Assembly (NCBI GenBank): GCA_903813345.2
Contig: CAIIXF020000001.1
Span: forward strand, 47,015,885-47,079,884
Direction: 5' to 3'
DNA: 64,000 nt
Origin: Owenia fusiformis
Taxonomy: Eukaryota > Annelida > Polychaeta > Sabellida > Oweniidae
Positions 21,301-33,129 of the stretch are shown in pieces (the stretch's first letter is position 1; every line of letters starts with the position of its first letter). Position numbers and translations under genes: made by a program. The notes under the pieces are model-generated. The model did no database searches and was not told the origin of the DNA. It was given only the letters and a program-made list of their open reading frames with translations.

Positions 21301-24300
21301 GGTCACCAGTGGCCCCAAGAAGCTATACAGGGGCCCCGAGTGGCCTCCAGAAGCTAAATGGTGGCTCCCAGGAGCTGTATGGTGGGCCTCAGTAGCCACA
21401 GAAGCTATACAAAGGCCCCCAATGGCCCCAAGAAGCTATAAGGTGGTCCTCAGAAGCTATACAGGGGCCTCTAGTAGCCCCCAGAAGCTATATGTTGGCC
21501 CCCAGAAGCTATACAGGGGCTCCAAATGGCCCCTAGAAGCTATATGGTGACCCTCAGAAGCTATACAGGGGCCCCCAGAAGCTATATAGGGGCTCCAAAT
21601 GGCCCCTAGAAGCTATATGGTGGCCCCCAGAAGCTAAACGGGGACCCCAGAAGCTATACAGGGGCCCCCAGAAACTATACAGGGCCTCCCAGAAACTATA
21701 CAGGGCCTCCAGAAACTATACAGGGACCCAAGAAGCTATATGATGGCCCCCAGAAGCTATACGATGGCCCCCCAGTGGCCCCAGAAGCTATATGTTAGCC
21801 CCCGGAAACTGTACGGTGGTCCCCAATATGGCCTCCAGAAGCTATACAGGGCCCTCCTGAGTAGCCCCCGGAATCTATACAGTGGCCCCTAGTGCTCCCC
21901 TAAAGCTATACAGTGGCCCCGGAAAGCTATATGGTGGCCCTCAGAAGATATACAGAGGGCCCCTAATAGCCCCAGAAGCTATATTGTGGGTCCCAGTAGC
22001 CCCAAGAAGCTTTACAGGGGCCCCTAGTGACCCCAAGAAGCTACATGGTGGGCTAAAGAAGCTATACGATGGCCCCAAGAAGCTATACGTTTGCCCCCAG
22101 AAGCTATACGGTGGCCCCCAGAAGCTATAGGATGGCCTCCAGTAGACCCAGAAGCTATATGGTAGCCCCTAGAAGCTGTACGGTTGCCCCCAATGGCCCC
22201 AAGAAACTATACAGGGGCCCCCAGAAGCTATACGGTGGCCCCCAAAAGCCAGAAGCTAAAACCGAAAACTATATGGTGGCCCCCCACTGTCCCCAAGAAG
22301 CTATACAGGAGCCCCCAGAAGATATACAGGGGCCCCTAGTGGCCCAAAAAACCGATATTGTGGCCCCAGAAGCTATACAGGGGCCCCCAGTGGCCCCCAG
22401 AAGCTACATGCTACATGGTGGGCTAAAGAAGCTATACGATGGCCCCAAGAAGCTATACGTTGGCCCCCAGAAGCTATACGGTGGCCCCCAGAAGCTATAG
22501 GATGGCCTCCAGTAGACCCAGAAGCTATATGGTAGCCCCTAGAAGCTGTACGGTTGCCCCCATTGGCCCCAGGAAACTATACAGGGGCCCCCAGAAGCTA
22601 TACGGTGGCCCCCAAAGGCCAGAAGCTAAAACCGAAAACTATATGGTGGCCCCCCACTGTCCCCAAGAAGCTATACAGGAGCCCCCAGAAGCTATACAGG
22701 GGCCCCTAGTGGCCCAAAAAACCTATATTGTGGCCCCAGAAGCTATACAGGGGCCCCCAGTGGCCCCCAGAAGCTTCATGGTGGGCTAAAGAAGCTATAC
22801 GATGGCCCCAAGAAGCTATACGTTGGCCCCCAGAAGCTATACGGTGGCCCCCAGAAGCTATAGGATGGCCTCCAGTAGACCCAGAAGCTATATGGTAGCC
22901 CCTAGAAGCTGTACGGTTGCCCCCAATGGCCCCAGGAAACTATACAGGGGCCCCCAGAAGCTATACGGTGGCCCCCAAAAGCCAGAAGCTAAAACCGAAA
23001 ACTATATGGTGGCCCCCACTGTCCCCAAGAAGCTATACAGGAGCCCCCAGAAGCTATACAGGGGCCCCTAGTGGCCCAAAAAACCTATATTGTGGCCCCA
23101 GAAGCTATACAGGGCCCCCCAGTGGCCCCCAGTGGCCCCCAGAAGCTATAAGAGGGTCCCCAGTGGCCCCCAGAATTAAGCCCAAATTTTCACTGACAAA
23201 AATATTCACTGTGTTGTCAATCTGAAATGTTTCATGGCCATTAAATTTCACTGTTAGAGAAAATATCCAATTGAATTCAATGTTACATCAAATATTCACA
23301 AGCCTTTAAATTTAAAAGCTACACGATGGCCCCCAGAAGTAATACAGGGCCCCCCAGTAGTCTGATTGCTCAGATGAGGAAAGCCAATGCTTATAAAATG
23401 TAGACATTATGCCAAAATCTAGACTATGCCAACCCCTCTATTGTATGATTACATTAGTTTTCATTATGATGGATGTTCTAAATATTAAACTTACATACAG
23501 AATTGTACTTCTGCAAGATGACCACCAAAGAAGTCTGATTGCTCAGATGAAGAAAGCCAATGCTAATAAAATTTAGACACTATGCCAAAATCTAGACTAT
23601 GTCAACCTCTCCATTGTAAGATTACATTAGATTTCATGCTGATACATGTACTGAATATAAAATTGTACTTACACATGATAACCACCATAGTCTAATTGCC
23701 CAGATGAGGGAAACGAATGCTTAAAATATTTAGACATTATTCCAATGTCTCGAATATGCAAACCTCTCTATTGTATGATTAAATTAGATTTCATGATGAT
23801 ATATGTACTAAATATAAAACCTCCATATAAAATTATACTTGTACATGGTAGCCATCATAGTCTGATTGCTAAGATGATACATTAGATTTCATGGGGATAC
23901 ATATACTAAATATAAAACTGATGGCATATAATATTGTACTTGTACATGATAACCACCAAAGTCGTATTGCTCAGATGAGGAAAACTAATGGTTATAATGT
24001 TAAGACATCATGCCAAAAGTCTAGACTATATGCCAACCTCATTACTGTATGAATTCATTAGATTTCATTTAATATACATGTATATACTACATATAAAATA
24101 TGCAGTGTCCTATATACTAGTGTAATACTATATGCTAGTTTAAGAATCAAGAATATGAAGAAATGTTGCATGTTGCAAAATAATGCATCTCTACAGTAAC
24201 AAATAGTGTTCTGTTACTGTTGCTATAGCAATGGATTAGGATTTTTTCTTGATTTTTTTTCATACATGTCAAGCATCATAGTAAAACTAATTCCTGAAAA

Positions 24301-26510: not shown

Positions 26511-26680
26511 GTGATTCATACCCTTAGTATTGTTCAAAGTATCAATCAATCTAAACGCAAAGCTTTTCTTTTTAATTCATAATCATAGATGCACGGTTAC
26601 GTAATTAAAGTACTTGTATTGTACAAAGGCTCAAAACTGTTAATTATAAACTCAAGAAATAATATTACAAAATCAGCAGC

Positions 26681-27261
26681 ATAGGCCAAGGGAAAAGTCA
26701 TAGTAAGCTGTATATAGAAGAGACAGGTCCACAAGTAAGATTGAAAAATTTTCAAATTTTTTTAGTCTTGGCACTAGTTCTCCTTACTGGTATCAAATTG
26801 TATTCCCAAATCTCTCCAAAATCTTCTTCAAAGTGTTTTTCAAACTTATATCATTGTTTTTTTCAAATCTTTATCTAAAAACTGCATATAATACTGCATA
26901 TAAAACAACAACTATGGATATCTGCAATTGCCTGGCAAGCTGAAACTGATTGTCACTGGTGGAGGTCAGGGAGGTCAGCAGTGACCAATCAGATCACTTG
27001 TTTACTAATGAACTTGCCAGGCAATTGCAGGTTTTCATAAATTCTCTCTTTTAGACAGCATTATTCACTCTACATCATCTGACTGAGTTTCAATCTTTGG
27101 TAAGAGCTACAAACTATTAATTTTCTATCAACTCCCCATGGCTTTTTGAAAATAATACACTAAAAATTGTTGAAATCTCCATCTTAAAAAGTGGTCTAAG
27201 TCAGAGTTGTTCACCTGTCTCTTCTATATACGGCTTACTATTACTTTACCCTTGGCCTATG
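26681..27261. mobile_element. hAT-type MITE with 8-bp target duplication
   Basis: 581 bp. The ends are inverted repeats of about 50 bp (CATAGGCCAAGGGAAAAGTC left, with AGTAAGC(T/C)GTATATAGAAG further in). They are flanked by a perfect 8-bp duplication ATCAGCAG (26673-26680, 27262-27269), the hAT hallmark. A second internal palindrome uses TGCAATTGCCTGGCAAG and its complement near 26926 and 27014. There is no transposase. Confidence 0.88.
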
Positions 27262-27435: not shown

Positions 27436-27554
27436 TTACCGTTTGCCCCAACTCCAGCTGCATCTAACACCACAGTAGTACGCGCGTCTCCATGGGCAGC
27501 ACACCCACTGAAAGCTACAGTGCACACCACACCCGCGTTTAAATCGTGTCGATC
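27436..27554 (-). other. exon encoding the candidate antimicrobial peptide
   Basis: The acceptor is TATATCATAG at 27555. The exon is entered in phase 1, matching the phase-1 donor at 27738. It encodes R221-R259. After RFKR the predicted mature peptide is residues 228-256, with Cys at 229, 233, 239, 240, 248 and 252 (spacing C-x3-C-x5-CC-x7-C-x3-C), four Trp, three Arg and one His, and no acidic residue. Gly257 followed by Lys-Arg at the very end is a standard amidation signal. The prediction is three disulfides, a cationic amphipathic peptide and a secreted host-defence role. The activity is inferred, not seen. Confidence 0.75.
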
Positions 27555-30500
27555 CTATGATATAGTTTAAAACATTTGTTTTCATATAATGTATATGTAC
27601 AAAGAGATTCAATAGGGCTCTGATATTGAAGATTATTATTTTATCGATATGCATTATTTTGTTAACGACCAGTACTATTTAGACTTTAATAATCAGATAA
27701 TAGAATAATATATCACTAGGTATATTCAAACTACGTACTTTTTGAGATATCAGTATTCATATGCTCATTAATCAATTCCTCAGGAACCGGCACGAGCCAA
27801 TGCAGAGGTATCTCATCGCAAGCTTCGCGTATCGCATCGGACAGGAAACCTCGCTCAGCAACAGGCTCCTCAGATGGCATCAACCGGGGGATGCTTGAGT
27901 CGTTCTTTGGTTGCTCAATATCAAATGTCCCGTCCTTCAAATGAAGACTTAAATTGAGTCAGGCTATACCAACAGCTTCAGGTCAAGTGTTAAGTTTCAA
28001 TGTTTTATCAATCAAATAATTACCCTATATCTATGTGTCATTCACTACATGTAGTAATTTATTCCTTTTTTAAGAATCAAAATGTAGCTGTTGGAAAGGG
28101 TAGCATACATTATCTATCATGATTTAAAATTGGCAATGCAAAAGCAGTTTAAAAGGAACGAACAAGCGTCAGTATGCATATCTTGAGATAATTGTGCATT
28201 AACAATTCAAATGTATTTTTCATGCAGAAAGGATCTTACCGGATGTGCCTCCATGTAGCTCTCAACAGCCTCTGGACTCATCTCTTCTTTATCGATAGTG
28301 CTGAGGAAGCACCCATAAATATTACCCATACGGGTACGCACTACTGTCAGTCCCTATAGAAATCCGAAATTATTTTGTTATCAAAATGATTCCAATATTT
28401 TTTGGGCTGGAATCACCTAATTCACTCCCAATAAAGTGCATCGCGTTCGGCTATCAATAGCTTGCACTTTGCCCTAAAGGGTGGTCCACAAAAGTGAACC
28501 CTTACAACAAGCTATATTTCAATTATTATATAAAAATTACCCACATTTAAATGGGCTAATATTTTCACATGTTTTAGAGGAAGGCCTGAAGTTTTTGCGG
28601 GTACCATAAAGGTCAGTCAGTCTTAAGTCTTGCAAAAGTTACATGGCATCAACAGATATGCCTGATAATGGATGGTGTCCTGAATCCATGCTCCGCCATT
28701 CTGGAATCTGGATAACTGCTGCAACGCGAATGTTGAGGTTTTTGACATACAAAATAGCCCTAGGCCTATGCATGCTACCTAGAGTGGGTAGAGCAGTGAA
28801 CAACTTAAACATTCGCATGATTGAAGACTGGTTGACCTTTATGGTACTTACAAAAGTTATAGACCTCCCTGAATATAGGTCGTTGCAGCGCAAGAGTTCA
28901 CTTTTGTGGACCACATTGTATATTGTAGACAGAGAAAGGCCTGACAAATGCACTCATCAAAAGAATACATGAGAGGTGATCAAGAATTTCGAACAAGCTG
29001 CACAGAGAATTTCAAGTAACCATTTTGGCCATCATGCAATTTGTAATGACAATGCGCAAGTTTTCCATTCCCCTGAGCAGCAGAGCAGCAACAATGAACA
29101 GATTGTAAACTATTTATTGATTATCAAATTTCTTACCTTGTTGAAATCGTGTAAGACAAAAGAGTGTTGTTTTGGGTCATCAATCTCTGTGGTTCTTTTC
29201 TCCTTATCCACCTTAACAGTTTCGGCACTTTCCCCGTCCTTTCCACCTTTCACGATCACAGAGTACTCCTGTGGTATTTAAATATACATATTCATTTAAT
29301 ATCTAAATCTTGATTTCCCATTGTATATTTACAAAATGATAATTGCGAAATACTATGAGACAAAATTTTAAAAAATACCTTTATTAAATCTTCGTGTGTT
29401 TCCCTAATCATGTGCATGGCACCGACGAGAGAGCCTACTACGATTAGCACAACTAGGACAACTGACACGCCTACTATGGTGTACTTCTTTGTATTTGTTT
29501 TGACTGGCGAAGGTGCCGGCATCTGTGATTAATAAAAAACACAAATGACACACGGTTATATGATACAAACACCTACGGTGTATACAACTAAACCTCGAAA
29601 ACACATCTTGTGTTTCTGATGTTTTAATATTGTTTCATCGGAACAAGGATCAAAAAATAAAAAGTGATATAAAGAGATAAGCAATTAGCTAAACTCCATA
29701 ACGAATGTGATTTTTGATATTTCATGATCACTATTCGGGCCTCCTAGACTTTCACTAACGCGATCATCAGTTCCGACCACGCGAACAAAGTTCCTTCCAC
29801 CCGAAGAACCAGTTCCTCCCTGGTGTAGTTCGTAGTTCGCAAGGTCGAAACTGATGATCACGTTAGTGGAAGACAGTAGACCTTTTATTTTTATTTTATA
29901 TTTTATAAAGCTACATGATGAGCGTCCTCAATAAAGTTTTTAAAACTCACTTGTAAATTATTAATAATTTATTATATTTTTATTAAAAAGTTATAATATT
30001 TTTATTGATTATTTATAAAATTTTCTTTGCAAACATTAAATATTATAGGATATTTTCCTAGTACCTTTTCATCAAAATATATTCGCATTGACTTGAGTGG
30101 AGAAATTTTAAAGTGTGTACCGGTATATACTTTTGTATTATATGCGTGATGTACAGTGCGTTTCAAAAAAACGCAGCAGATTGTTATTTCGGAAAAGCAC
30201 AAAACCAGTGATAACAGCATTGATTTCATTGAATGCACAATAAAGCCATGTGTCTCCTCTTTACAATGATATATCATTCATTGATATTTGGTCATGGTTG
30301 TGTGAGTAATCATTCCATTTGCAAAGTGGGCCAAAATTAGCTTGGGACCAAGTTATAATTAAACATCGCAAAAGTCAGTGTACGGAGCCCGATGCAATAT
30401 TGGAAGAAAACATAAAACCAATGCTGACTGCATCCCTTTCATTCGATGTACCAAAAAGCCAAATTACTCCTCTTTGCAATGGAATATCATTCATTCACAG

Positions 30501-31250
30501 GGAGTCATGGCTAACCTAATAATCATTAATTTTGCAAAGTGGGGCAAAATTCAGTTCGGACCCAAGTTTTAAACATTGCAAAAATCACTGCAAGGGGCAT
30601 AGGGGCTGTTGGGAGAAGGTGTGACAGGTGTTACATAGACAATAAAGTGTTCATACTCATCTTGCAAGAATACATCCTATACCCCTCCAAATTGCCAGCA
30701 CTTCCTTGCACATAAAAATGCGCTCATCTGTCCACGTCATGCATGGTTCAGCCATGAGTCATCTGTGGGTTAAAGCAGAGAAAAGCAGCCCATGGGCAAT
30801 TCTTTCTCGAGGTTTTGCAATATCCGGAGGAGGAATTGTGAGCACAGATGCTCCTGAGATAGCTCCAAAAGAAAAAGTCACAAAAATTCAGGGGAACTTC
30901 CATTGGCACTAGATTAGCCCTTGCACTGATTTTTGCAATATCTAAAACTTGGTCTAGAGCCGATTTTGACCCACTGTGCAAATGGAAGGATTTCTCACCC
31001 AACAATTACCACATGTGAATGAATGACATATCATTGCAAAGAGGAGAGACGTGGCTTTATGGTACATTGAATAAAATTGATGTAGTCATCACTAGTTTTG
31101 TGATTTTAGGAGATAACTACTTGTTGCGTTTTTTTATACGCCCTATATAATACATGCATATACTATATAACTTACGTGTTCTGTGGTGAAGTTCTTTTCG
31201 GTATCACCTGCAGCCGTTTCTTTGCCAACAATGGAAATATCTGGCTTCAT
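27436..31250 (-). CDS. type II membrane BRICHOS precursor with C-terminal cysteine-rich peptide
   Basis: Minus-strand exons: 31250-31176, 29522-29379, 29268-29137, 28353-28240, 27934-27739, 27554-27436 (stop TAA). The sum is 780 nt, 259 aa, and all junctions are in phase (0,0,0,0,1). Residues 1-38 are cytosolic, 40-62 form a transmembrane anchor with no cleavable signal, then come a linker and the BRICHOS domain (about 74-210). That domain shows a VLHDFNKGLT strand region and the conserved Cys pair C132 (IYGC) and C194 (REACDEIP). Exon 6 adds RFKR (224-227), a 29-residue six-Cys peptide and a terminal GKR. BRICHOS domains act as intramolecular chaperones for an aggregation-prone C-terminal peptide, and annelid arenicin-type precursors release antimicrobial hairpins in this way. 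The intron-5 donor (GTACGTAG) overlaps an in-frame stop, so retention would give a 222-aa form without the peptide. Confidence 0.82.
28481..28914. mobile_element. inverted-repeat MITE in BRICHOS intron 3
   Basis: 19-bp perfect ends GTGGTCCACAAAAGTGAAC (28481-28499) and its complement (28896-28914), with further inverted pairing inside (ACCATAAAGGTCA near 28605 against TGACCTTTATGGT near 28833). The overlapping frames on both strands (28639-28972) are a consequence of the palindrome; no protein is supported. No clear target duplication. Confidence 0.65.
29747..29874. repeat. small palindromic element in BRICHOS intron 1
   Basis: ACTTTCACTAACGCGATCAT CAG at the left pairs with CTGATGATCACGTTAGTGGA at the right, enclosing about 75 bp. 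It is likely a short MITE. Confidence 0.55.
30154..31145. mobile_element. TA-flanked inverted-repeat element in BRICHOS intron 1
   Basis: The ends carry CAGTGCGTTTCAAAAAAACG (left) and, in reverse complement, TAGGGCGTATAAAAAAACGC (right). They continue as about 150 bp of inverted homology (AATGATAT(A/G)TCATTCATT, AT(A/C)AAGCCA(T/C)GT) and are flanked by TA. A further internal copy of the arm lies at about 30360-30560. It is non-coding, 992 bp, and probably a Tc1/mariner-derived non-autonomous element. Confidence 0.7.
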
Positions 31251-33129
31251 TTTTTCAGCTGAGTCGAGTTATTTGATGAAACTATCAATTGGTTTGAAAG
31301 TTGTAATAGTACTAGTTGTCTCCAAATAAAGAAATAAGGCGCGCACTGCGAGATCTCAACCCAGGGGCTTCTTTTATATCCAGGGCGCTACGCTCAAGCT
31401 CTGGTGCGTTCCTTTTCGATTGGTTGTTACAACAAGGAAGTTACCTTAAAAGGAAAACATCCTGGGTTCTGTTGAAATTATCTTTAATTAAATTGATATA
31501 ACAATGAAAAGAATGGGCTAACCTGGCCTGGGAACAAGGTAACCTGACAGTTCCAAGAACCGTCAACTGTACCTGTCTTTGATATGGTGTTATTTTTGTC
31601 ATTATTCATGCATTTTAGTCTTTTAAAGAAAGATGAGATCATTCCACAATATCATACGATTCCCACGTAGACAAATAGTCATCAGTAGAAAATAATGGCT
31701 GCTTTCGAATGTGTGCATCACCTGCTTAGTCTGTTGTTACCCTTGAATATCTGTTTCGATCGAACATTGATTTTTCTGCCTCACATGCTTTAAAAATATC
31801 CAATATACATGACCACGCCATCCAAGGACCAAAACCAAATGCAAAGGAATATGTGACAAGGAGGTCAAGGGAGTATATAAGTTCAATGACATAGGGTTGT
31901 TCAGTGGCTGAGAAACTTCCCAAATTCGAGAGGAGCAATAAGAGAAGTGAAAAGACTTTGACATACTAGTAACTAAGTTCGTGATTTAATTTCCTCTCCC
32001 TTCCTCTTCAATTTTTCTCTTTGAATCGTAGCGATTTATTACATGCAATTTGTTTTCAGTTTCCATTATCATGGCTTCAATTGCAAAAATGCATTTGGCA
32101 AAAAACTTTTTGTATTTTTGACCAGGCCTAGTAAAAGCAGGCCCATTGACAGATGTTCGAGACTGCTTTGGCGAACTGATCTCCGTGGATATTCTTCGGG
32201 AAGTAGAGAAAAGTAGTTTCAGCCAAGTTTGCGACCGATACTTTATTTCAGCGCGTTTGTGGAGCCCTAAATCGTCCCTCCTCTATAAAAAAGGTTCCAT
32301 GTCCACTTGCACAATATTTGCAGAAAACGGAGAACAAACATCTAGGTTCCTCTATCTTTGTGATACAGTAAAATAAAATGTTGATATGAATGCTTATGGA
32401 TCATATAGCCATGATGAATCAATCCTGATCAGGATCAAAGAAATGTCAATGTTTTAGCTATAGGCTACTTTAAAAAATGCATTTGGATACCTTTTGCATC
32501 TGTAACAAAAAGATCGGTTCATTTGATGGAGATGGAATCTTTAATAACCATTGAATACAGGGCTAGTCAATGAGATAAAGCTATCTTTTAAGAAGCTAGT
32601 CACATTATTGCGTAGGGTACGGAATCCTAGATCTGTTCAAGTAAATCGTACATCGACTTAATAGTACATCGCAGTTTTGATGATGGGGGGGGGGTTCTTC
32701 GAATAGGTTCGAGTTATAGTTAATGACAGCTTTATTTGACTCACTTTCAAATGTAGGCCTTACCAAATATGGTACTTGAACCTTTTATTTTCAGGATAAC
32801 TTACATCCCTGTAGCAAAAAAAGTTCATGTTCATATGATAGTGCTGCGTATTTGTTTGTCAATCTAGGTATAGTACGCTTATTCTAGATTTCATAGAACT
32901 CATGAATTATTGTGGTCACGTATTAAATCCAATGATGAACGACTCGATGCCATCGTGACATGTCAATCATGCAATACAATTAAATATCAGTTTGATGAAA
33001 AGATACGTTAAAAATAGCATTCGGGGAAATATTCCAAATACGGATTTTCTTTCAGATGTTTATCAAAATACTGAGACAAACAACAGAACAAGGTTTACAT
33101 TCAATATTTAGAAACCAAATTCAAGATGG

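What the first reader, a model, noticed from the sequence alone, without database searches (positions are those of the whole stretch)
27436..31250. New BRICHOS antimicrobial-peptide precursor gene
A phase-perfect six-exon model joins a type II membrane BRICHOS protein (Cys pair 132/194) to a last exon that encodes RFKR, a 29-residue peptide with six Cys (C-x3-C-x5-CC-x7-C-x3-C), four Trp and no acidic residues, then GKR at the stop. Known BRICHOS peptides of annelids (arenicin, alvinellacin, capitellacin types) have two or four Cys in a simple hairpin and usually a cleavable signal peptide. A six-Cys, probably amidated peptide on a membrane-anchored BRICHOS protein would be a different class. 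The gene structure is seen; processing and activity are inferred.
Basis: partly seen in the sequence, partly recalled or inferred. Interest (0 to 1): 0.92.

Follow-up and report, generated by a model that had tools for sequence, protein, structure and literature searches.

The report
Worm BRICHOS gene for six-cysteine peptide
The window holds a real animal gene, probably from a marine worm, for a chaperone-carrying precursor that ends in a small six-cysteine, probably antibacterial peptide; it is a new variant of a known family of worm peptide antibiotics, and sister genes in the same genome carry other cysteine patterns.

Summary
Six exons with GT-AG introns and one open frame give a 259-residue precursor: hydrophobic segment, BRICHOS domain (Pfam E 2.4e-8), RFKR, a 29-residue six-Cys peptide, GKR, stop. 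An intact paralogue 39 kb away, outside the window, keeps all six exons, promoter and exact Cys spacing, so the last exon belongs to the gene. Intron phases (0,0,0,0,1) equal those published for alvinellacin: it is a BRICHOS antimicrobial-peptide gene. It is not a new class: membrane-anchored precursors and Cys-rich payloads are published. What looks new is the C-x3-C-x5-CC-x7-C-x3-C framework with an amidation signal and a related six-Cys peptide spaced as a three-rung ladder. The outer four Cys match a four-Cys paralogue, so I infer a hairpin with two extra Cys near its tip. Between the two copies the precursor is constrained (dN/dS 0.11), the mature peptide not (1.06), the reverse of Alvinella. 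I found 21 BRICHOS genes with about five payload kinds; payload broadly follows the BRICHOS tree. Expression, processing, pairing and activity are untested.

The parts
31372..31378 (-). TATA box (TATAAAA), about 120 bases before the ATG
   Evidence: conserved with its flanks in paralogue B
31176..31250 (-). exon 1, residues 1-25 (start Met1)
   Evidence: same exon in B
29379..29522 (-). exon 2, residues 26-73; begins with ATG (Met26, possible other start)
29418..29480 (-). hydrophobic segment, residues about 40-60 (signal anchor or signal peptide)
   Evidence: Kyte-Doolittle maximum 2.9 at 41-59; Pfam SP_C-Propep 34-77, E 2.5e-5, just under its cut-off
29137..29268 (-). exon 3, residues 74-117, linker and start of BRICHOS
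28240..28353 (-). exon 4, residues 118-155, BRICHOS with Cys132
27739..27934 (-). exon 5, residues 156-221 (first base of codon 221), BRICHOS with Cys194
27436..27554 (-). exon 6 after a phase-1 intron: end of codon 221, STRFKR, mature peptide, GKR, stop
   Evidence: homologous last exon in B, C10a and C7a
27535..27546 (-). RFKR, furin-type cleavage site
   Evidence: sequence; identical in B
27448..27534 (-). mature peptide GCGVHCSFQWVCCPWRRAYYCGVRCSWSW, C-x3-C-x5-CC-x7-C-x3-C
27439..27447 (-). GKR, amidation signal (Gly plus basic residues before the stop)
   Evidence: GKK in B, GK in C10a, GRK in C7a

Best explanation
An annelid-type BRICHOS antimicrobial-peptide gene. Shown by sequence: a precursor with a hydrophobic segment, an acidic pro-part, a BRICHOS domain with its Cys pair, a furin-type site and a short cationic, Trp/Arg/Cys-rich tail with an amidation signal. 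Inferred: the precursor enters the ER by its hydrophobic segment; BRICHOS holds the hairpin-forming tail while disulfides form; furin cuts after RFKR; a carboxypeptidase and the amidating enzyme leave a Trp-amide; the free peptide acts on microbial membranes at the body surface or in coelomic fluid. Most likely fold: a beta-hairpin with rungs C1-C6 and C2-C5 (as in four-Cys relatives), with the adjacent C3-C4 at or near the tip either forming a vicinal disulfide or linking two molecules.
For: Pfam BRICHOS. Intact paralogue with the same exons, promoter, furin site, Cys framework and amidation signal. Intron count and phases equal the alvinellacin gene (PMC4002450, legend of Fig. S6). A, B, C10a and C7a share outer C-x3-C ... 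C-x3-C and SWG plus basic residue, and the phase-1 last intron. The BRICHOS tree puts the five hairpin-type genes together, 100/98. AlphaFold hairpins for A (pLDDT 72) and C10a (pLDDT 81.5, block 11-20 at 90, strand register equal to a three-rung Cys ladder).
Against: No transcript, peptide or activity data were available. The AlphaFold strands for A (3-13, 17-28) do not fall in the register that pairs C1-C6 and C2-C5 (pTM 0.24, weak). The fifth hairpin-type gene, C10b, departs: C-x3-C-x11-C-x1-C and a frame that runs on 28 residues. C7a has a long branch, so its place in the tree is unsure. Foldseek gave 0 hits for A and one at E 9.9 for C10a; three mature peptides match no PDB chain. A mature dN/dS of 1.06 could also mean relaxed constraint.
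Confidence: 0.82

Rival explanations
1. A BRICHOS precursor whose amidated peptide is a signal (hormone or neuropeptide) and not an antimicrobial.
For: GKR amidation signal and dibasic processing fit secreted signalling peptides (sequence). BRICHOS precursors need not carry AMPs: this genome has strongly acidic and Ser-rich payloads too.
Against: Net +3 to +5, 6-9 aromatic residues and no acidic residue in the mature peptides of A, B, C10a and C7a. Fast change of the mature peptide with the Cys kept is unusual for a hormone bound by one receptor. The nearest relatives by gene structure and hairpin Cys are AMPs.
Confidence: 0.1
2. The six Cys do not form a hairpin ladder but another arrangement (for example C3 or C4 paired with C5), so the peptide has a fold not seen among BRICHOS peptides.
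For: The CC sits five and seven residues from the outer pairs, so it cannot make a third cross-strand rung in the register of the outer pairs (sequence). AlphaFold places the turn at residues 14-16, out of that register.
Against: The outer four Cys align with a four-Cys paralogue (C7a) and a six-Cys ladder paralogue (C10a).
Confidence: 0.25
3. Gene A is a decaying duplicate and the mature exon evolves without constraint.
For: Mature dN/dS 1.06 between A and B.
Against: No stop or frameshift in either copy; precursor dN/dS 0.11; 6 of 6 Cys, RFKR, WSWG and the promoter are kept. The chance that all six Cys lie among the 20 identical of 32 aligned residues is 0.04, modest support.
Confidence: 0.05
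4. The last exon belongs to another transcript and the six-Cys tail is a chance reading frame.
For: No RNA data here.
Against: Same last exon, same phase, same place and same Cys spacing in B; homologous last exons in C10a and C7a; 0 of 100 shuffles hold the pattern.
Confidence: 0.02

Closest known systems
Alvinellacin and capitellacin (BRICHOS-AMPs; PMC4002450 passages, PMC7761999 passages)
   Same: Hydrophobic segment, BRICHOS, C-terminal Cys hairpin peptide; the alvinellacin gene has 6 exons with intron phases 0,0,0,0,1, as here
   Different: Two disulfides (alvinellacin C1-C4 and C2-C3) and a signal peptide reported; here six Cys with an adjacent pair and an amidation signal
UuBRI-21, UcBRI-21, BvBRI-21 and HfBRI-20/-23/-25/-28/-54 (PMC9410094 passages; PMC10745061 section 2.1)
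   Same: Membrane-anchored BRICHOS precursor with C-terminal peptide after a basic cleavage site
   Different: No six-Cys peptide is mentioned in the text I read: HfBRI-54 five Cys, HfBRI-25 two disulfides, HfBRI-20, -23 and -28 without Cys; the sequences in figures were not seen
HfBRI-75/-91 and AmIMP1/2 (PMC10745061)
   Same: Cys-rich BRICHOS payloads; the 10-Cys acidic tails on C5 and C8 of this genome look alike in kind
   Different: 11 Cys (HfBRI-75/-91), not clearly cationic; AmIMP sequences were not seen by me
Theta-defensins (PMC13001179, passage)
   Same: Three disulfides on one beta-hairpin, like the C10a sister peptide
   Different: Macrocyclic, from primates; no BRICHOS (recalled); analogy only

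Membership tests
BRICHOS antimicrobial peptides (annelids) | BRICHOS domain with two conserved Cys | tested here: met
   Pfam E 2.4e-8, 34.5 bits over cut-off 25; Cys132 and Cys194
BRICHOS antimicrobial peptides (annelids) | N-terminal hydrophobic segment (signal peptide or membrane anchor) | tested here: met
   Kyte-Doolittle 2.9 at residues 41-59; which of the two it is was not settled
BRICHOS antimicrobial peptides (annelids) | Dibasic/furin-type site before a C-terminal cationic peptide | tested here: met
   RFKR in A and B; mature net +3 and +5
BRICHOS antimicrobial peptides (annelids) | 6 exons, introns phase 0 except the last in phase 1, AMP in last exon | tested here: met
   against the alvinellacin gene in PMC4002450
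BRICHOS antimicrobial peptides (annelids) | Double-stranded beta-sheet (hairpin) held by one or two disulfides | tested here: inconclusive
   AlphaFold hairpin at pLDDT 72, pTM 0.24; six Cys, so up to three disulfides; pairing unknown
BRICHOS antimicrobial peptides (annelids) | Antimicrobial activity of the released peptide | not testable with these tools
   needs synthesis and assay
BRICHOS antimicrobial peptides (annelids) | Host is an annelid | tested here: inconclusive
   C1-C12 are 31.9-62.2 Mb, C13 0.66 Mb, 498 Mb in 525 contigs, against 505.8 Mb and 12 chromosome-scale scaffolds for Owenia fusiformis (PMC9977687); contigs after C13 were not looked at and no marker gene was compared

The most novel reading that the evidence does not exclude
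In an early-branching annelid (probably Owenia) the BRICHOS cassette is a general chaperone platform that has been fitted with about five kinds of payload. In the hairpin branch one scaffold has given rise to a four-Cys hairpin, a three-rung six-Cys ladder, and an amidated hairpin whose tip is closed by an adjacent-Cys (vicinal) disulfide, a topology that I met in none of the passages read on hairpin antibiotics. Payload evolves fast while its chaperone is held, the reverse of Alvinella.
Probability: 0.3. Interest if true: 0.72.

Novelty: new variant of a known kind. Interest (0 to 1): 0.52.

Why it matters
If the host is Owenia (outside the two large annelid clades, recalled), the BRICHOS-AMP gene structure is older than its known distribution suggests. 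The genome gives a natural series (four Cys, six-Cys ladder, six Cys with CC) on one scaffold, so the effect of each added disulfide, and how far a BRICHOS domain is tuned to its own payload, can be tested directly. The contrast with Alvinella, where the chaperone and not the peptide diversified, becomes testable in a second worm. The peptides themselves are new antibiotic leads.

Tried and rejected
Phage collection search with the precursor: no match. PDB by sequence: only proteasome-type hits that I read as chance, best E 0.0065, and none for three mature peptides. NCBIfam: one hit, E 0.088, far under its cut-off. Bacterial promoter scan upstream: uninformative for an animal gene. Foldseek with the two hairpin models: 0 hits for A, one at E 9.9 for C10a. 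A search for Owenia chromosome numbers returned unrelated genomes; led to PMC9977687 and to PMC11371463, whose passages gave no size. Papers with BRICHOS and Owenia: 0; BRICHOS and vicinal disulfide: 0; BRICHOS, polychaet and three disulfide: 4. Of those 4 I read passages of two (PMC6780910; PMC13001179), where 'three disulfide' refers to other peptide families; the other two (PMC11767717, PMC10608444) I saw only in the listing. Other listings. The library holds only open-licence papers, so a published six-Cys BRICHOS peptide elsewhere is not excluded.

I considered that a membrane anchor makes a new class and rejected it after PMC9410094 and PMC10745061.

Rows dropped: C10b was left out of alignments A2 and A3 because its frame runs on 28 residues past SGAK; it is in the five-row alignment, cut at SGAK. 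C5d was left out of the tree because its exon 4 was not found with my anchor. A BRICHOS match at C4:82 kb was not made into a gene. C4m is in the tree as kind IV although its tail was not found, so that row was labelled by its BRICHOS sequence and is circular. The Fisher test used truncated counts (17:4 mature, 12:28 precursor).
Full report
WHAT IS THERE. On the minus strand of the window, exons 31250-31176, 29522-29379, 29268-29137, 28353-28240, 27934-27739 and 27554-27436 join through five GT-AG introns (phases 0,0,0,0,1) into one frame of 259 codons. The product has a 19-residue hydrophobic peak of 2.9 at residues 41-59, the next best elsewhere being 0.8, a BRICHOS domain at 108-201 (Pfam E 2.4e-8, 34.5 bits against a cut-off of 25) with Cys132 and Cys194, then KR-STRFKR, the peptide GCGVHCSFQWVCCPWRRAYYCGVRCSWSW and GKR-stop. 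Residues 62-227 have net charge -12; the mature peptide is +3 with no acidic residue. The six-Cys codon pattern occurs once in the window, and 0 of 100 shuffles contain it.

IS IT A REAL GENE. The window lies at C1:47015885-47079884 of a 498-Mb assembly. A complete second copy, B, lies 3.5 kb beyond the window end (C1:47086279-47083381, same strand; the two start codons are 39 kb apart). All six exons are open with the same borders and phases. The last exon reads STRFKR|GYRCGWICNVRLGCCPWRYRYYCGFRCVWSWGKK-stop: same C-x3-C-x5-CC-x7-C-x3-C, same RFKR, same WSWG plus two basic residues, with two codons inserted before the first Cys. The promoters align (76% over 491 columns that include exon 1), with an identical TATAAAAG and a largely identical stretch behind it. 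In G000 the last-exon peptide matched at 3 places at E up to 10: A, B, and a chance place with four stops, E 4.

WHERE IT STANDS IN ITS GENOME. A search with the precursor gave 48 exon matches at E up to 10, the weak ones included. I fetched the stronger places and read them exon by exon. By their tails I sort them into five payload kinds. (I) Cationic hairpin type: A; B; C10a (C10, about 8.536 Mb), RVRR|GCRYYCWVQCGFGGCRYVCGIRCSWGK-stop; C7a (C7, about 7.010 Mb), KYGR|GCRFGCWIRWTGWGRYWYCGITCSWGRK-stop; and C10b (C10, about 8.545 Mb), RVRR|ACKYICYYTPIGGIVRRICRCVGG..., whose frame runs on. (II) Three genes at C7:22.6 Mb with an EKR or KKR site and a 78-residue tail of 8 Cys, net +4 to +11. (III) Four genes on C5 and one on C8 with 95-163-residue tails of 10 Cys, net -11 to -21. 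(IV) Genes at C1:7.53-7.56 Mb and C3 with short tails of adjacent Cys (three to five in a row in C1a, C1b and C3; only CC in C1c, uncertain); for C4:15.55 Mb (C4m) I found no tail. (V) Genes on C12 and C4 with Ser/Cys-rich tails. Splice links between BRICHOS and tail were read only for A, B, C10a and C7a; the other tails are open frames downstream. A tree of exons 4+5 of 20 genes (21 found; C5d dropped) makes each of the five kinds one side of a branch: 4 changes in all, the minimum, against a shuffled mean of 12.5, as low in 0 of 200 shuffles; the hairpin kind has support 100/98. Cautions: kinds II, IV and V have weaker support (85/87, 66/87, 91/94); C7a, C1b and C8a are long branches; C4m was labelled by its BRICHOS and not by its tail; near-copies add to the clustering. 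So payload and BRICHOS have, broadly, travelled together.

CYSTEINE FRAMEWORKS. In MAFFT alignments A, B, C10a and C7a share outer C-x3-C ... C-x3-C and a tail SWG plus basic residue. C7a has no other Cys (C-x3-C-x12-C-x3-C). C10a adds C-x4-C next to the turn (C-x3-C-x3-C-x4-C-x3-C-x3-C). A and B add an adjacent CC before Pro-Trp. C10b departs (C-x3-C-x11-C-x1-C). Alvinellacin pairs C1-C4 and C2-C3 (PMC4002450). By homology I infer C1-C6 and C2-C5 in A; the remaining CC must then pair with each other, pair between molecules, or stay free. AlphaFold on alignments of four exon-6 peptides gave a hairpin for C10a with strands 5-15 and 18-28, exactly the register of a three-rung Cys ladder (mean pLDDT 81.5, block 11-20 at 90, pTM 0.30). 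For A it gave a hairpin with strands 3-13 and 17-28 (pLDDT 72, pTM 0.24), which does not match the inferred register. I count that against a simple ladder in A.

EVOLUTION. Between A and B, Nei-Gojobori dN/dS is 0.023/0.207 = 0.11 for residues 1-227 and 0.277/0.262 = 1.06 for residues 228-259. Replacement against silent changes differ between the two parts with Fisher p = 0.0003 on truncated counts. Silent divergence is alike in both, so the excess is in replacements; within the mature part dN does not exceed dS (p = 1). All six Cys are kept, though with 20 of 32 aligned residues identical that alone has probability 0.04. In Alvinella the abstract of PMC5431198 reports adaptive diversification of the chaperone but not of the AMP, and a passage has the AMP under strong purifying selection. 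Here the pattern is turned round. One pair of genes cannot tell positive selection from relaxed constraint.

COMPARISON WITH WHAT IS KNOWN. The alvinellacin gene has 5 introns, all phase 0 except the last in phase 1 (PMC4002450, legend of Fig. S6): identical here, and the last intron is also phase 1 in C10a and C7a. A review gives the family plan as hydrophobic region (signal peptide or transmembrane), proregion with linker and BRICHOS, and Cys-rich double-stranded tail with one or two disulfides (PMC6780910, passages). Membrane-anchored precursors are published (PMC9410094, passage; PMC10745061, section 2.1 in full), and so are payloads with 0, 5 and 11 Cys. Word searches for 'amidat' in six papers showed no amidated BRICHOS-AMP: no occurrence in PMC10745061, PMC4002450 and PMC7761999, and only other contexts in PMC9410094, PMC6265681 and PMC6780910. 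Figures and supplements were not read. So this is a new variant of a known kind: the features listed as met were tested, hairpin and host are inconclusive, and antimicrobial activity is untested.

HOST. Contigs C1-C12 are 31.9-62.2 Mb and C13 is 0.66 Mb, 498 Mb in 525 contigs. That fits Owenia fusiformis (505.8 Mb, 12 chromosome-scale scaffolds; PMC9977687, passage). No marker was compared and contigs after C13 were not looked at, so this is a probable, not shown, identity. No paper in the library holds both BRICHOS and Owenia. That Owenia branches outside the two large annelid clades is recalled.

MECHANISM, SHOWN AND INFERRED. Shown: gene, paralogue, domain, cleavage motif, Cys framework, amidation motif, selection contrast. 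Inferred: ER entry, chaperoning by BRICHOS, furin cut, amidation, hairpin, membrane activity. Whether the hydrophobic segment is an anchor or a signal peptide is open: exon 2 starts with ATG, and VGA before Met61 would fit a signal-peptidase site by the -3,-1 rule (recalled rule, no predictor run).

VERDICT. Its class claim is too strong. Interest lies in the six-Cys variants, their likely early-annelid host, the payload series on one scaffold and the turned-round selection pattern.

Noticed in passing
C1:47086279-47083381 (L003, L006), 3.5 kb beyond window end: Complete paralogue B with the same six-Cys framework; mature part changed fast, precursor conserved.
   Followed up: yes
L011 999-1079 (C10, about 8.5365 Mb): Related six-Cys peptide GCRYYCWVQCGFGGCRYVCGIRCSWGK with the spacing of a three-rung ladder; AlphaFold hairpin in the matching register.
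   Followed up: partly
L022 (C7, about 7014640-7014410): In the four-Cys paralogue C7a a hydrophobic stretch (ILSVSALLLLFVLGVVS) reads in frame straight into exon 3, like a signal peptide in place of the separate anchor exon.
   Followed up: no
L029-L031 (C7:22.605-22.654 Mb): Three BRICHOS genes with a 78-residue, 8-Cys, cationic tail after EKR or KKR, perhaps another peptide family.
   Followed up: partly
L032-L036 (C5:8.39-8.45 Mb, C8:30.785 Mb): Five BRICHOS genes with strongly acidic 10-Cys tails, in kind like HfBRI-75/-91; the C8 one ends in a long Ser/Asp repeat.
   Followed up: partly
L019-L021 (C1:7.53-7.56 Mb), L023 (C3:21.39 Mb): BRICHOS genes followed by short frames of adjacent Cys (for example RQKR|DEEKPCCCCLICFWCLG); function unknown, splice links not checked.
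   Followed up: partly
L025 (C4:53003, 53103, 53203): At least three tandem copies, 100 bases apart, of the start of a BRICHOS exon 4 upstream of a group-V gene.
   Followed up: no
window 26680-27261: Nested inverted repeats (55-nt arms, 91%, and 52-nt arms, 75%) just behind the gene, MITE-like; a translation of the inner arm recurs almost unchanged near C1:7.550 Mb.
   Followed up: no
window 21307-23173: GC-rich array of about 21-nt units (AGAAGCTATACGGTGGCCCCC-like) with a 370-nt higher-order period, 96% alike.
   Followed up: no
window 30194-31106: Intron 1 of the gene holds diverged direct and inverted copies (144-156 nt, 73-74%), perhaps an old mobile element.
   Followed up: no
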